This document shows, piece after piece, positions 24,316 to 60,630 of a stretch of DNA of 64,000 nucleotides. Positions within the stretch are counted from its first letter, which is position 1; every line of letters starts with the position of its first letter. The notes under the pieces were generated by a model. It was not told the DNA's origin, ran no database searches, and saw only the letters and a program-made list of their open reading frames with translations. The DNA is from Flavobacteriaceae bacterium (GTDB lineage: Bacteria > Bacteroidota > Bacteroidia > Flavobacteriales > Flavobacteriaceae). The translations under genes were made by a program, and so were the position numbers. The DNA lies in the NCBI GenBank assembly GCA_029243165.1, contig JAQWSN010000005.1:186001-250000 (forward strand), in the 5' to 3' direction.

Positions 24316-24416
24316 AAAAGTTGCTTTTACGGAAGGATTCAAACGGTGCGTTTAAAAAAGCAACACTGCTTTAGCATTTTTTTTTCGAGGTTGCAATCAG
24401 TCAAATCCTTCCTCGT
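24316..24416 (-). promoter_or_regulatory. SAM-II/SAM-V type riboswitch leader of the met operon
   Basis: Reading the minus strand, P1 is CGAGG (24415-24411) pairing with CCTCG (24390-24386). Its loop holds GATTTGACTGATTGCAACC and the 3' segment TGCTAAAGCAGT (about 24376-24365) can fold back on the loop (ACTG with CAGT) as an H-type pseudoknot. GATTTG, TTGCARCC and GCTAAAG are the conserved SAM-II core words as I remember them. Expression platform: GGAAGGATT in the aptamer (24412-24404) is perfectly complementary to AATCCTTCC (24339-24331). GTTGCTTTT (24364-24356) pairs with AAAAGCAAC (24328-24320), followed by TTTT before the metK ATG. The two foldings are mutually competitive. SAM-V shares the core, so the class is not settled. 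Confidence 0.85.
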
Positions 24417-24425
24417 TTAATTGTT

Positions 24426-56562: not shown

Positions 56563-56707
56563 TCATAAAGCAACTCCTTTCCCGAAAAATTCAATCAAAC
56601 CACAACACTATATTTATTTAATGAATGTTGTTGTATGCCATCAGCACATATTAATGCTTTTCTACTTTTTTTGTAGGGCGTTCTCGGGTAAGGAGTTTAC
56701 TTCATGA
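56563..56707. repeat. Long imperfect inverted repeat framing the crRNA-like element
   Basis: Left arm 56563-56585 and right arm 56684-56707 are inverted copies. The core AACTCCTTTCCCGA (56572-56585) matches the reverse complement of 56684-56697 at 13 of 14 positions. The outer part extends it by about 9 bases with one gap and few mismatches. The right arm includes the stop codon of the cas9-like gene. As RNA it would close a ~145-nt hairpin around the guide/repeat element. No following U-run on either strand, so it is not a classical terminator. Confidence 0.85.
56571..56640 (-). ncRNA. Putative single crRNA-like unit (guide plus repeat) for the Cas9-like protein
   Basis: On the minus strand a 36-nt repeat-like stretch (56606 to 56571) begins GTTGTGGTTTGATTGAAT, the look of Bacteroidota type II-C repeats. 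Its first 18 nt pair with the tracrRNA anti-repeat at 60153-60170: 14 Watson-Crick pairs, 2 G-U pairs and one UU/UU internal bulge. The 20 nt directly 5' would be the guide: ATTCATTAAATAAATATAGT. No second repeat copy is upstream, so this is a lone unit, not an array. It lies right after the cas9-like stop codon on the same strand and may be processed from that mRNA; I found no promoter of its own. Guide length and 5' end are unknown. Confidence 0.65.
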
Positions 56708-59700
56708 ATAACTTTTTATTGATTTTTTAAATTCTAACGTTTCATCTTTTATTGATAATTTTCCGATAGCGTTCAAACTTACCTTGATAGGGTTGTGTGT
56801 CTGCCAACCGGTCTTGCGATGACCAAAATTATTGATACGTACATAATAAGGGGATTCCGTAATGGAAGTATCATTGTGATGTACCAAACGAAATTCATAA
56901 AACTTACTGGAAAGCTTTTGGACCCTGTAAAGGTGTTTTGCTAAAAAACTCTTCGACTCATTTTCAATAGTCAACTGTGTTTCCTCTATGTCGAGTAAAA
57001 ATAAATCGTTTATCTGTAATGTAGTTACAAATTCAACTCCATCCTCTGGAAGTTGAAAAACAGGCTCACCAAAACGAAATCTACGAACAGCCTCCCAAAA
57101 AGTAACAACATGCTCACAATATTCATGGGATTGATTTAGATAGATCAATACATGATGATTGTTTCTCAAATTTACATACTGATTCTCACCATTCTTCACT
57201 TGAACAACTCCACTTAACATCTCCCTTATTCTGACTTTCTTTATGGGAACATTGTCTCCTTTTGTATTGGTCATAAATACTTTTGGAATAGAGTACCCTT
57301 CATCATTTTTGCTAAAAAATGCTTTATTAGGAATGCTATCTGCTGAAAATCCTCCAGCAGCTTCAATAGCATCTATCACAACTTTTCTTACTTCTACATC
57401 TACAATTTTAGAAACTTGTTTTTTCGTTTTGATTTGACTTAAATTTTTTCGAATATGATAGGCCTCCTGTTGATCTTCTGGAGATTTTCTCTTACCTAGT
57501 AAGGTTTCTTTATGTAATGAGCCTCTAACCGATAAACAAAAATTTTCATAGTGCCGATCACCGTTTCTTGTTCTGTGTTTTCTACTTGAAATTAACTTGT
57601 TTACTTTTTTATGTGAAACCAATACCGAGTTAATATGACACTCCAAATCGTCTTGAAAACCTTTGTATGGTTCGGGAAACTCTATTCTATTTCCTGATGG
57701 ATGATATTTGTTTTCATTTGCTAACAGTTCAATGTATTCTTTTGATCGATTTGCATTAATGTAGGCCAAAAGAATATTGTAGCGATAATCGAGTTGAGAG
57801 GATTCATAAATTTCCGGACTGAAAATTTGATGTAACCTCCACTTTTCAATAAACATGAGTGTAGACTGTCCTGGTGAAATGCTAACTTTTTCAACCCCTT
57901 GAGACAAATAATTTTTAAGATTTCGGCTTAAAATATTCGCATCCATTAACTGATGCTTAAGAGGATCTCTATGGTTATGTTTTTTTACAAAACGTTTAAA
58001 TTTTCTGAAACTTGAAGGAAAGGATTTATTGTTAGAAAACAACCTTGCGGCTCTTTTTACAACGGTACTCCATTCTTCTGAATTGTAGGTGTTAAAATAT
58101 TCGTAAGGGCTAAAGTCTAAAATATTTTTTGAGAAGGATTTTATGCAAAGTGCTTTGTTCCAATGACTGTCGTTTAGAGAATATTTCCATGGTTGAATGT
58201 AAACAACTTTTACTGCTTCGGTAAATAATTCCGTAATTGGGATATGAGCTCCTGTGTAGGGGCAGGTTTGCTTACATTCTTCCCATAATTCGTATTTAGT
58301 TAGATTCATTGGGGTAATGTTTTCTGCACGTTCACCGAGAAGCTCAATATATCTTGCCCTTAAGGCTTCTCTTCTTTTTTGGTCTAATTTATTCAGATAG
58401 CGCTGAAATTTATTGAGTTTAATATTTGCACTTAGTTCCGCTTGAATCTCATGGATTGTACCAAATTCTTTGATAAGTTCATTCAGGATTTTTCTCAACT
58501 GAAAAGTTGTGTTTACTAAATGAGGGTTTTTAAAATCTCTAATTTGCTTGTCGTCTTCTTTACTTACAGGAAATTTTGAAAGCCGCTTAATTTGTTTTTC
58601 CTCAGTTTCTACTCCGTAAAGTTTGGAAACATTGAGGTCTAACAATGCCATTTCCTCCTCCAGAAAATCCTTTAATTTGGGTATAAATTCTCCATTTTTA
58701 TTGTCTTTATACAGATTTGAAACCGTCTTTATCACATAGCTTACATCTCTATCGTCAATGGTTTTCCATCTCTCACCCAAACAATTTTTTACACCTGCAA
58801 GAATTACTGCAAGATCATAAACTACCCCTCGTTTTAAAAAATACAAAATCCCTCGAGCTGCCTTCTTACTGATAGGGGCATAATTTTTATCCAATTGGAT
58901 GGAGGAGATTTTTTTAGCTTGAAAATCATCAAATCCCCATTGATTTATGAAGTATGTCTTTAGCAGAGATACATTATTAAAAAAATACAGATTATGCCAA
59001 ATATCTTCTCTATCCTTTTCACTCATCTCAAACCAGGAGGCACCAAAAAGTTGAGGATGAGATAGTGTTGCATTAACGAAGGATCCCTTAATTAATTCGT
59101 CTTCTTTGATATTGTAATGGCCCTCTCTGTTTTCAAAATGATTTACAACTCTATTGAAATCAAATCGTTTATGAGTCAAAAAGAAATCCTTGGCGATTCT
59201 GCGATCTCTTGGAGATAAATAAATTCCATTTCTTTTAAGAGAATTTGCCCGGCGGTAGGCAAGCACTTCTTGAAAAGTTAAACTCGATACACAGCATTTT
59301 GGTTTTTTAGGCTCATAATGACAACGTCCAATTCTGAATTTTTGAGACTTTAAAGGTCGCTGGAAAAATATGGCTCCTTTTTCAATTGAAGTTTGGACCT
59401 GATTTCCAATGAGATCAATTTTTAATTCCTCTGTAAGCCCTTTGTGAAATTGCTTTTGATAATTCCAGATTTGCAGCAATTCTTCCTGAAACATTTCTCT
59501 AGTCAAATACCGATTTCGCAATCGTTCATTTGTGTAACGATACGTTTGATTTTCTTTAGGTAGAACAGTATTCAAATAACTCCCAAGTGTCTTTTCTTTG
59601 AGGTTTTTAAGGGTATGATTGATTCCTATCCGGTCTTGCATTGGAGAGCCATAGTACATGGTGGTCTCTTTTTTACCTCTATTTCTTTCAGATACTGGAA

Positions 59701-60127
59701 ATCCTCTTCTGAGAGTAATTTGATAGAAAATACGTCCCAATTCTTTTAAATCCAAAGGCTCTTTCAACGCTTTTGCTCGAAGTTCATAAGGGTTGAGTCT
59801 AAACCAAGACTTCAATTCTAAATCTGGAAAGGCTTTTTGTTTTTTATAATTAATAAGCCCCTCTTCAGTTAATTGACACATTAAATTTTTAACCAAAAGA
59901 TTTAAAACTTTTATTTTTCTTTTTCTTCTTCTTTGATATCTTAAACGAGTGGTTCTTTTTCCTCTTTTAAATGCTCTTTTCGAAAGCTCTCTTTTTCCGG
60001 ATCCATAATTTTCAGAGGCAATAGGAAAAATGCGACTACCTACAGAAATGATTTTCTTACTATCAGAATCTAACAATACCCAACCTATCGCATTTACATC
60101 AATGGAAAGTCCTAGTAGATTTGGCAT
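56702..60127 (-). CDS. Naturally nuclease-dead type II-C Cas9 homologue
   Basis: 1141 residues with the Cas9 order: RuvC-I (1-40), Arg-rich bridge helix (about 50-72), YELRAKALKEPL and LRRGF (114-143, II-C hallmark), REC region (to ~540), RuvC-II (555-600), HNH (610-680), RuvC-III (721-840), then C-terminal wedge/PAM domain (VRGSLHKETLLG at 867-878). Active sites are changed: GLDIG is GLSID (S8), HNH DH-I-x-P is V642-Y643-I-Q-P, the HNH Asn position is S666, and DHRHHAIDA-type RuvC-III is DYRYNILLA (N784 and L787 for His and Asp). Only RuvC-II E564 remains. The scaffold, including GNNHH-like RNNHHVLIY text, is kept, so binding of RNA and DNA without cutting is expected. cas1 and cas2 are absent. 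A LuxR-type gene ends 68 bp upstream. Confidence 0.93.
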   Translation of the reverse strand: MPNLLGLSIDVNAIGWVLLDSDSKKIISVGSRIFPIASENYGSGKRELSKRAFKRGKRTTRLRYQRRRKRKIKVLNLLVKNLMCQLTEEGLINYKKQKAFPDLELKSWFRLNPYELRAKALKEPLDLKELGRIFYQITLRRGFPVSERNRGKKETTMYYGSPMQDRIGINHTLKNLKEKTLGSYLNTVLPKENQTYRYTNERLRNRYLTREMFQEELLQIWNYQKQFHKGLTEELKIDLIGNQVQTSIEKGAIFFQRPLKSQKFRIGRCHYEPKKPKCCVSSLTFQEVLAYRRANSLKRNGIYLSPRDRRIAKDFFLTHKRFDFNRVVNHFENREGHYNIKEDELIKGSFVNATLSHPQLFGASWFEMSEKDREDIWHNLYFFNNVSLLKTYFINQWGFDDFQAKKISSIQLDKNYAPISKKAARGILYFLKRGVVYDLAVILAGVKNCLGERWKTIDDRDVSYVIKTVSNLYKDNKNGEFIPKLKDFLEEEMALLDLNVSKLYGVETEEKQIKRLSKFPVSKEDDKQIRDFKNPHLVNTTFQLRKILNELIKEFGTIHEIQAELSANIKLNKFQRYLNKLDQKRREALRARYIELLGERAENITPMNLTKYELWEECKQTCPYTGAHIPITELFTEAVKVVYIQPWKYSLNDSHWNKALCIKSFSKNILDFSPYEYFNTYNSEEWSTVVKRAARLFSNNKSFPSSFRKFKRFVKKHNHRDPLKHQLMDANILSRNLKNYLSQGVEKVSISPGQSTLMFIEKWRLHQIFSPEIYESSQLDYRYNILLAYINANRSKEYIELLANENKYHPSGNRIEFPEPYKGFQDDLECHINSVLVSHKKVNKLISSRKHRTRNGDRHYENFCLSVRGSLHKETLLGKRKSPEDQQEAYHIRKNLSQIKTKKQVSKIVDVEVRKVVIDAIEAAGGFSADSIPNKAFFSKNDEGYSIPKVFMTNTKGDNVPIKKVRIREMLSGVVQVKNGENQYVNLRNNHHVLIYLNQSHEYCEHVVTFWEAVRRFRFGEPVFQLPEDGVEFVTTLQINDLFLLDIEETQLTIENESKSFLAKHLYRVQKLSSKFYEFRLVHHNDTSITESPYYVRINNFGHRKTGWQTHNPIKVSLNAIGKLSIKDETLEFKKSIKSYS

Positions 60128-60150
60128 ATTGAATTATTTTTATAGCTTTG
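60120..60150 (+). promoter_or_regulatory. Promoter of the tracrRNA
   Basis: TTTG at 60120-60123, 19 nt, TAGCTTTG at 60143-60150: exact match to the Bacteroidota -33/-7 consensus. It points away from the cas9-like gene and overlaps its start codon (60125-60127). Transcription should begin near 60155, at the first bases of the anti-repeat. Confidence 0.85.
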
Positions 60151-60152
60151 TC

Positions 60153-60222
60153 ATTCAATCTTATCACAATAAGGCTAAATGCCGTAGATGAATTCTTAAA
60201 TCCCGCTTTGGTGGGATTTTTT
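60153..60222 (+). ncRNA. Compact tracrRNA
   Basis: About 70 nt. Order: anti-repeat ATTCAATCTTATCACAAT (60153-60170); nexus AAGGC-TAAAT-GCCG (60171-60184), which with the preceding ACAAT recalls the ACAAUAAGGC...GCCG nexus of the Neisseria II-C tracrRNA; a short linker; then the terminator hairpin 60198-60219 with a U-run to 60222. A perfect promoter precedes it. It is antisense to the leader of the cas9-like gene and to the last codons of the LuxR-type gene. The anti-repeat pairs with the lone repeat at 56589-56606. Confidence 0.87.
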
Positions 60223-60630
60223 ATTTAATATAGTTGACATGAAACTTGATTCTACATTAGAATAAAACTCAAGTAACATTTCATAAAGTTCCCAAATAGT
60301 TTTTTTTGAATCTTCTTTACTTGATTTGAAATGCTCTTCATACTCATGTGCAAATTTCAAAGCAAAACCTTTTACCTTTTCAGGTGTAAATTCCTTAGAT
60401 TTTAAAATGTTGACCTGGTAGGCTGTCTGAACAGCAGCATATGCATTACAAACATCCAGTTTTTGAAATAAATTTTGGCAATGTTTTTCGTAGGTCTCTT
60501 TTGAAATTTCAAGGAGGTCTCTAATAGTATCACAACTTAAACCCAGAGCAATCGATTTTAAAATGATAAGCTCTGAGTTAGAGAGTGATTTTTGCATTCG
60601 GGATTGGGGTATTTTAACTTTCTTGTTCAC
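60196..60630 (-). CDS. LuxR-type helix-turn-helix protein
   Basis: 144 residues. Residues 16-72 match the LuxR/FixJ C-terminal HTH pattern: LSNSELIILKSIALGLSCDTIRDLL, EISKETYEKHCQNLFQKLDV, then N-x-x-AAVQTA. There is no receiver or ligand domain before it. A ~70-residue charged, helical tail follows, with no family I recognise. Its last codons overlap the tracrRNA terminator on the other strand. It ends 68 bp before the cas9-like gene in the same direction, so both may share a transcript. It is a candidate regulator or partner of that system. No clear promoter identified upstream. Confidence 0.85.
   Translation of the reverse strand: MNKKVKIPQSRMQKSLSNSELIILKSIALGLSCDTIRDLLEISKETYEKHCQNLFQKLDVCNAYAAVQTAYQVNILKSKEFTPEKVKGFALKFAHEYEEHFKSSKEDSKKTIWELYEMLLEFYSNVESSFMSTILNKKSHQSGI
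60198..60222 (+). terminator. Intrinsic terminator of the tracrRNA
   Basis: AAATCCCGC-TTTG-GTGGGATTT forms a 9-bp stem (one G-U) followed by TTTTTT on the plus strand. On the minus strand no U-run follows, so it acts in the tracrRNA direction only. Confidence 0.9.

What the first reader, a model, noticed from the sequence alone, without database searches (positions are those of the whole stretch)
56702..60127. A type II-C Cas9 homologue with nearly every nuclease residue replaced
The protein aligns end to end with II-C Cas9 motifs. Against the catalytic positions it has S8 (RuvC-I Asp), V642/Y643 (HNH Asp-His), S666 (HNH Asn), N784 (RuvC-III His) and L787 (RuvC-III Asp); only E564 is kept. 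Both nuclease centres are lost independently while the reading frame, bridge helix, REC, HNH scaffold and C-terminal domain are intact. That pattern indicates selection for binding, not decay. Cas1/Cas2 and an array are absent. The natural analogue of engineered dCas9 is, to my knowledge, little or not described.
Basis: partly seen in the sequence, partly recalled or inferred. Interest (0 to 1): 0.97.

Follow-up and report, generated by a model that had tools for sequence, protein, structure and literature searches.

The report
Natural dead Cas9 with fixed guide
A group of Flavobacteriaceae bacteria carries a Cas9 protein that has lost both of its DNA-cutting centres but has kept its helper RNA and one built-in guide, so it looks like nature's own version of the laboratory tool 'dCas9', although the DNA it binds is still unknown.

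Summary
Window 56702-60127 (minus strand) encodes an intact 1141-aa Cas9 homologue with a II-C Cas9 fold and no complete nuclease centre. It is not a one-off: dead Cas9s of nine genomes (three partial) form one fully supported clade against 18 active rows, under strong purifying selection since inactivation. In six full-length members RuvC-I Asp, HNH His, HNH Asn and RuvC-III Asp are lost 6/6. RuvC-III is relaxed, while the C-terminal part is relatively more conserved than in active sisters.

The pairing segment changed on both partners relative to the sisters. No Cas1 and no array with this repeat were found in the genome.

Best reading: Cas9 exapted as a dedicated RNA-guided DNA-binding regulator (natural CRISPRi). 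The target was sought in several ways and not found, so the regulatory step is inferred. Many relatives have since lost the gene. I judge it a new variant of a known kind.

The parts
56702..60127 (-). dcas9: 1141-aa nuclease-dead II-C-type Cas9 homologue (S8, Y643, S666, N784, L787; E564 kept)
   Evidence: ORF; TIGR01865 345 bits; fold Z 31.6 to Nme1Cas9; catalytic columns against 14 active sisters
60153..60222 (+). tracrRNA (ends estimated): anti-repeat ATTCAATCTTATCACAA, nexus, terminator hairpin AATCCCGCTTTGGTGGGATT plus T run; antisense to the HTH-dcas9 junction
   Evidence: aligned with 7 other loci of the dead clade and 5 active sisters, A3; seen first upstream of sister cas9 genes
60120..60150 (+). 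predicted tracrRNA promoter of Bacteroidetes type, TTTG-N19-TAGCTTTG, spanning the dcas9 start codon
   Evidence: read from sequence; consensus TTTG/TAnnTTTG recalled; a TAnnTTTG box also stands before the anti-repeat in G676, G678, G684, G671 and G165
56607..56627 (-). guide of the single crRNA-like unit, 5'-CATTCATTAAATAAATATAGT-3' (may extend a few nt further 5')
   Evidence: AATAAATATAGT invariant in 12 of 12 aligned loci from four genera and also present in G099
56589..56606 (-). repeat part of the crRNA-like unit, 5'-GTTGTGGTTTGATTGAAT-3', can pair with the tracrRNA anti-repeat
   Evidence: first 14 nt identical to the CRISPR repeat of active sisters; only exact copy in the genome
56681..56708 (-). 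5' arm of the long outer stem, around and after the dcas9 stop codon
   Evidence: duplex -34.0 kcal/mol, z -6.1 against 200 shuffled arm pairs
56563..56588 (-). 3' arm of the outer stem, up to the end of the convergent DUF456 gene
   Evidence: fold of the whole unit
60196..60630 (-). 144-aa GerE/LuxR-type HTH protein just upstream of dcas9; its last codons are the antisense of the tracrRNA terminator
   Evidence: PF00196 3.1e-8; homologues upstream of dcas9 in G676, G678, G684, G020, G185; absent beside dcas9 in G043 and G165

Best explanation
A type II-C Cas9 was exapted in Flavobacteriaceae as a dedicated RNA-guided DNA-binding protein. Shown from sequence: both nuclease centres are lost, the Cas9 scaffold is intact and under purifying selection, the tracrRNA gene is kept with a predicted promoter and a terminator hairpin, and one crRNA-like unit sits in the dcas9 3' UTR inside a long stem. 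Inferred: the dcas9 messenger carries the crRNA; tracrRNA pairs with its repeat part; RNase III trims the duplex and perhaps the outer stem; the dual RNA loads dCas9; and the complex binds, without cutting, a chromosomal or mobile-element site that matches the seed ...AATAAATATAGT next to a PAM, blocking or tuning transcription there. The HTH protein encoded upstream may act with it in one lineage but is not essential.
For: One dead clade, 100/100 support, 9 of 9 dead rows apart from 18 active rows. Catalytic columns in six full-length dead members: D8 kept 0/6, H643 0/6, N666 0/6, D787 0/6, H784 2/6, E564 3/6; in 14 active sisters all 14/14. Purifying selection: window against G682, 502 codons, pS 0.79, pN 0.13; against G676, 1140 codons, pS 0.77, pN 0.29. 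Relative conservation of the C-terminal part 1.29 in dead against 0.89 in active, RuvC-III 0.69 against 1.07. tracrRNA in dead loci aligned with the sisters'. Anti-repeat and repeat part share GATTGA in 6 of 6 loci of the window's lineage that hold dcas9 and where both could be read (G000, G676, G678, G684, G020, G185; GATTGAAT in G000, G684, G185), where the five sisters read have GATTAAAGATTAG on both. crRNA-like unit: invariant 27-nt core in 12 of 12 aligned loci. Outer stem z -2.5 to -6.1 in those 12 loci, and more stable on the dcas9-sense strand in 11 of 13 loci that hold dcas9 or a piece of it. After loss of the gene the parts degrade: genus genomes with any dcas9 piece keep a 32-nt core perfect (9 of 9), the four with the core but no dcas9 match have 1-2 mismatches; the stem is lost in G099 and in three of those four; tracrRNA anti-repeat and terminator are decayed in G671.
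Against: No target was found: the 12-nt seed has no shared second site in nine genomes; seed plus NNNNNTAAA gave no site shared by five genomes (30 of 47 sites were read in context, among them all of G000 and G676); seed plus the flank inferred from two sister protospacers gave none shared at the locus. G666 keeps the outer stem (z -4.9) without dcas9. In the second lineage (G043, G264, G165) the repeat parts match their tracrRNAs over a shorter and less clear stretch. The bridge helix, an RNA-binding part, is relatively less conserved than in active sisters. Many relatives lack the gene. No expression or binding data. The PAM of this clade is unknown.
Confidence: 0.68

Rival explanations
1. 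A CRISPR relic in slow decay: Cas9 lost its nuclease after adaptation genes and array were lost, and the protein persists by inertia.
For: Frameshifts in G684, large deletions in G682, G137, G671, G674, G677, G099, G139; 29 of 38 genus genomes without a match. No target found.
Against: Saturated synonymous change with low non-synonymous change among dead members; no stop in the six full-length members of five genera, at 36-57% identity to the window protein; RNA parts conserved with the protein and mostly degraded after its loss.
Confidence: 0.12
2. A binding-only defence: the fixed guide silences a recurrent phage, plasmid or transposon rather than a host gene.
For: One 13-nt seed match in the own genome ends 9 nt before the start of a 125-aa ORF near the edge of a contig; viral contigs with seed matches of 15 nt or more exist.
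Against: The 30 viral matches fall into about a dozen sequence groups, many contigs repeating one another; no chance expectation was computed and nothing ties them to this host. The guide is conserved across genera, unlike immune spacers.
Confidence: 0.12
3. The conserved unit is not a guide: dCas9-tracrRNA acts on its own operon or on RNA (tracrRNA antisense to the HTH-dcas9 junction), and the 3' UTR stem serves messenger stability or termination.
For: No target found; tracrRNA overlaps the operon; the reverse complement of the seed resembles a -7 promoter box (consensus recalled); one genome keeps the stem without dcas9 (G666).
Against: Exact match of the repeat part to the sister CRISPR repeat and co-change with the anti-repeat; the strictly invariant stretch of the guide lies at its repeat-proximal end, as expected for a seed.
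Confidence: 0.06
4. A residual nickase or an otherwise active nuclease using shifted residues.
For: E564 is kept and an Asp lies at position 10.
Against: RuvC-I Asp, HNH His, HNH Asn and RuvC-III Asp are absent in 6 of 6 full-length members; D10 is absent in two of these six.
Confidence: 0.02

Closest known systems
Type II-C CRISPR-Cas9 of Flavobacterium and relatives (active sisters found here, about 1120-1150 aa)
   Same: Same protein family and length (37-42% identity), same tracrRNA architecture and position, same first 14 nt of the CRISPR repeat
   Different: The 14 sisters aligned keep all six catalytic residues and 12 of those 14 show an array within the fetched stretch (the other two contigs end near cas9); here nuclease dead, no array with this repeat, one fixed crRNA-like unit
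TldR, nuclease-dead TnpB transcription factors (PMC13418256, passages read)
   Same: Exapted nuclease-dead RNA-guided protein with its own guide; short guides suffice there
   Different: Derived from TnpB, phage-encoded, with a known flagellin target; here derived from Cas9, uses tracrRNA plus crRNA, chromosomal, target unknown
scaRNA-directed repression by Francisella Cas9 (described in PMC8730458 and PMC6199352, passages read)
   Same: Repeat-like segment outside an array, in repeat orientation, pairs with tracrRNA and carries a short guide
   Different: That Cas9 is an active nuclease that also does immunity; here the protein should be able only to bind
tracr-L autoregulation in type II-A (PMC11417352, search listing only; details recalled)
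   Same: Cas9 used as a repressor by a special guide RNA
   Different: Active Cas9 in a working immune locus; guide is a long tracrRNA form
dCas12f with sigma factor (recalled; searches did not list such a paper)
   Same: Nuclease-dead CRISPR effector in regulation
   Different: Type V protein; the ECF sigma gene near dcas9 here belongs to the conserved chromosomal neighbourhood, is kept after dcas9 loss and is absent beside dcas9 in G185

Membership tests
Cas9 protein family | Score above the curated cut-off of TIGR01865 over the whole length | tested here: met
   345.3 bits, cut-off 100, residues 5-1103
Cas9 protein family | Cas9 fold end to end | tested here: met
   Nme1Cas9 6je4_A Z 31.6, model 1-1135; model pLDDT 70.6, pTM 0.49
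Cas9 RNA-guided endonuclease | RuvC and HNH catalytic residues | tested here: not met
   Window protein keeps 1 of 6 (E564); clade-wide loss
Type II CRISPR-Cas immune system | Cas1 for adaptation | tested here: not met
   PF01867 none in own genome, 94% complete; Cas2 not searched
Type II CRISPR-Cas immune system | CRISPR array with this repeat | tested here: not met
   One exact copy of the 14-nt repeat start per genome in 5 of 5 genomes searched; one-mismatch sites scattered, 0-7 per genome
Type II CRISPR-Cas immune system | tracrRNA with anti-repeat | tested here: met
   (by sequence; transcription not tested)
scaRNA-type Cas9 regulation | Repeat-like RNA outside an array that can pair with tracrRNA | tested here: met
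   Single unit at 56589-56627, complementary to the anti-repeat; transcription not tested
scaRNA-type Cas9 regulation | Guide complementary to a chromosomal target next to a PAM | tested here: inconclusive
   No conserved site found
TldR | Descent from TnpB | tested here: not met
   Protein is a Cas9 homologue throughout
RNA-guided transcription factor (function) | Guided DNA binding that changes transcription | not testable with these tools
   Needs RNA-seq, ChIP-seq and reporter assays

The most novel reading that the evidence does not exclude
A vertically inherited natural CRISPRi system: a dead Cas9 lineage that releases its only crRNA from its own messenger's 3' UTR and serves as a dedicated RNA-guided transcription regulator of Flavobacteriaceae, with a second lineage carrying two fixed guides (G043, G264, G165) and with later miniaturised derivatives in which the upstream HTH protein is joined in frame to the Cas9 C-terminal domain (G137, G139).
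Probability: 0.45. Interest if true: 0.93.

Novelty: new variant of a known kind. Interest (0 to 1): 0.86.

Why it matters
Engineered dCas9 founded CRISPR interference; a natural, selected counterpart descended from a type II-C Cas9, with tracrRNA and a fixed guide, would show that evolution took with Cas9 the same step that is known for TnpB. It would give a natural model of Cas9 binding without cutting, and a set of six full-length dead proteins to map which parts serve binding and which serve cleavage. Ortholog surveys can miss such proteins by design: one survey kept only proteins with the catalytic residues (PMC7606464, passage). The question is directly testable because protein, tracrRNA and guide are all defined here.

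Tried and rejected
Target search. (a) The 17-nt guide end with up to 2 mismatches in the own genome: only itself plus one 2-mismatch site. (b) Exact 12-nt seed in nine genomes: extra sites in five of them (G000 2, G020 1, G099 1, G185 4, G676 1), not shared (context read for eight of the nine). (c) Seed plus NNNNNTAAA, the PAM reported for F. columnare II-C (PMC8092290, passages), at the locus and in five genomes: 47 sites, of which 30 came as loci and were read in context, among them all of G000 and G676, which share none; one orthologous pair (G684 L159, G020 L160) lies inside a conserved gene. (d) The low count of such sites in the own genome looked like off-target avoidance; rejected, because that genome avoids the tetramer TATA as a whole. 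(e) A GLPGLI-type gene (name recalled, from no call) lay near 12-nt seed matches in both the own genome and G185; rejected, as strand and position differ and the homologues in six other genomes have at best 5-10 nt of seed match in the stretch fetched (10 nt in G684, at another place). (f) AAATATAGT in two genomes: many sites look like the reverse complement of a general -7 box before genes; one orthologous promoter (acyl-CoA dehydrogenase by reading, L240/L235) is shared but beyond the 9 nt the match to the guide stops at once. (g) Viral contigs: 5 and 25 matches, no coherent link. (h) PAM from sister spacers: nine arrays against phages in ten searches gave two credible protospacers (FL-1 with two mismatches, FCV-3 perfect) that share the flank NNNNACAT, unlike NNNNNTAAA; two points are too few. 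Seed plus that flank gave nothing shared at the locus.

ECF sigma factor as partner: rejected as specific, since it stays in place after dcas9 loss (G099, G139, G137) and is missing beside dcas9 in G185.

dN/dS as a ratio: synonymous sites are saturated, so pS and pN are given; the one ratio the script printed (0.13, window against G020) rests on dS 3.6 and is not used.

A formal covariation count of the outer stem was not made, because the arms did not align well in A2; z-scores against shuffled arms are used instead. One translation (HTH of G676) was in a wrong frame and was not used.
Full report
What is there. The interval 56702-60127 holds, on the minus strand, one open frame of 1141 codons. 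It scores 345 bits against the NCBI Cas9 model (cut-off 100) along residues 5-1103. An AlphaFold2 model built from 21 sequences of the window and fetched loci (mean pLDDT 70.6, pTM 0.49) matches II-C Cas9 structures from end to end, best Nme1Cas9 (Z 31.6, 812 residues, rmsd 13.1). By sequence, GeoCas9 is the closest solved protein (chain named).

Catalytic residues. In an alignment with 14 active sisters RuvC-I Asp, RuvC-II Glu, HNH His, HNH Asn, RuvC-III His and RuvC-III Asp are present in 14 of 14 sisters. The window protein has S8, E564, Y643, S666, N784 and L787 there. Six full-length dead homologues (window, G676, G020, G043, G185, G165) keep D8 0/6, E564 3/6, H643 0/6, N666 0/6, H784 2/6, D787 0/6. 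Partial dead homologues G678 and G684 agree where they can be read. The residues kept differ between members, so some were lost at different times.

A clade, not an accident. Homologues were sought in 299 genomes of the family (66 matched at 1e-5), 395 of the order (16 at 1e-40), 38 of the genus (9 at 1e-5) and GTDB contigs (23 loci). In a tree of 27 rows the 9 dead rows are one side of a branch with 100/100 support. Left out of the tree: short remnants and many of the active or distant loci. Three dead rows were partial (G678, G682, G684). The root is not inferred, and several branches are long.

Selection. Window against G682: 502 shared codons, pS 0.79, pN 0.13. Against G676: 1140 codons, pS 0.77, pN 0.29. 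Against G020: 1139 codons, pS 0.74, pN 0.35. Synonymous change is saturated while the protein is held; as S8 and Y643 are shared by window, G676 and G020, this constraint followed inactivation. By region, relative identity (region over whole) in dead and active groups is 1.29 and 0.89 for the C-terminal part, 1.18 and 1.11 for RuvC-I, 0.69 and 1.07 for RuvC-III, but 0.99 and 1.16 for the bridge helix, 1.00 and 1.07 for HNH, 0.96 and 1.01 for REC. The groups differ in depth (mean identity 0.40 and 0.79), so the ratios are a guide only.

The RNAs. Active sisters carry arrays with the repeat GTTGTGGTTTGATTAAAGATTAGAAAACACGATATT and an antisense tracrRNA just upstream of cas9. The window keeps that tracrRNA at about 60153-60222 (+), with a Bacteroidetes-type promoter (consensus recalled) and a terminator. 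Downstream of dcas9, in its sense, lies one copy of the first 14 nt of the sister repeat, preceded by a guide-like stretch. In 12 aligned loci from four genera a 27-nt core, AATAAATATAGT plus GTTGTGGTTTGATTG, is invariant, although the full-length proteins among them are down to 37% identical to the window's. The segment that pairs with the anti-repeat shares GATTGA on both partners in G000, G676, G678, G684, G020 and G185 (GATTGAAT in G000, G684, G185), where five sisters have GATTAAAGATTAG on both. In G043, G264 and G165 the match is shorter and less clear. In Fp2Cas9, a larger Flavobacterium II-C nuclease, a UUU bulge in the crRNA is essential and spacers of 24-26 nt work best (PMC12609912, passages); the unit here has an unpaired GTTT at the like place.

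The outer stem. The guide unit is framed by a stem that starts around the dcas9 stop codon. Energies against 200 shuffled arm pairs give z -6.1 in the window and -2.5 to -6.1 in the 12 loci, although arm sequences differ; the dcas9-sense strand is the more stable in 11 of 13 loci with dcas9 or a piece of it (exceptions G139, G099). This suggests a crRNA carried by the dcas9 messenger; processing is inferred.

Coupling and loss. In the genus, 9 of 38 genomes match dcas9: window and G676 full and open, G678 open on two contigs, G684 frameshifted, G682 only residues 640-1140, and short pieces in G137, G677, G674, G671. A 32-nt core is present in 13 of 38: perfect in those 9, with 1-2 mismatches in 4 genomes without a dcas9 match, not found within 3 mismatches in 25. 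Only 7 of the 38 genomes are at least 90% complete and at most 5% contaminated, so absences are soft. The stem is gone in three of the four genomes without dcas9 (kept in G666) and in G099, which holds a C-terminal remnant; in G671, with dcas9 reduced to 41 plus 36 matching codons, anti-repeat and terminator have decayed. The RNA parts thus largely follow the protein. Retention of the perfect core in genomes with only remnants could be recent loss or a separate role.

Surroundings. The locus is a fixed chromosomal site: on one side DUF456, an ORF without a Pfam match, and RuvC-like, HemW-like and dipeptidase-like genes; on the other HTH, a 75-aa ORF, ECF sigma, Nramp and a LipA-like gene. The '-like' names come from reading the sequences, not from a family call. 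The HTH protein accompanies dcas9 in one lineage and is absent beside it in G043 and G165. There, two crRNA-like units occur, with guide ends GTTAAAATTT and ATAGT. In G137 and G139 a single frame joins HTH to the Cas9 C-terminus.

The missing piece. No target was found (see Tried and rejected). In TldR guides of 6 nt suffice (PMC13418256, passages), so a short seed with an unknown PAM could escape every search made here.

Print. Searches for natural, inactive or degenerate Cas9 in the held PMC library listed no paper that describes one, as far as the listings show; two searches for dCas12f with sigma factors likewise. Listings were capped and most subscription papers are not held, so priority is not established.

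Verdict. A natural dead Cas9 under selection with its own two RNAs is well supported; that it regulates transcription is the best inference and remains unproven.

Noticed in passing
window (whole) and loci L176-L179 of the same genome: The genome strongly avoids the tetramer TATA (for example TATAG 18 observed against 173 expected on both strands of a 132-kb sample); in samples of four related genomes it is not among the most avoided words. Perhaps a restriction or modification trait.
   Followed up: partly
window 24361-24420 (-): SAM-II riboswitch, 80.3 bits.
   Followed up: no
L036 11965-12060, and the stretches shown of L034, L046, L047, L050: Active sisters carry an inverted half-repeat ending in AAACCACAAC right before the first repeat of the array, in several with a hairpin-forming stretch between; possibly a leader structure or a long tracr-like guide.
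   Followed up: no
L062 8714-9292 (G137), L061 7367-7885 (G139): Single frames of 192 and 172 aa that join a GerE HTH domain (weak Pfam scores) to 80-106 residues of the dead Cas9 C-terminus, in two genera: deletion remnants or new small regulators.
   Followed up: partly
L123 10308-11813 (G682): An open 502-codon half Cas9 (residues 640-1141 at 80% identity) without its N-terminal half, HTH or tracrRNA.
   Followed up: partly
L055 12100-12230 (G043), L057 5410-5490 (G165), L058 17570-17680 (G264): Two crRNA-like units 52-88 nt apart downstream of the Cas9 frame instead of one; G264 shows only C-terminal Cas9 pieces at contig ends.
   Followed up: partly
L033, L035 HNH region: Two Flavobacterium sisters have Val at the HNH Glu/Asp position (IVHIHP, with ENILKG), the other catalytic residues intact.
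   Followed up: no
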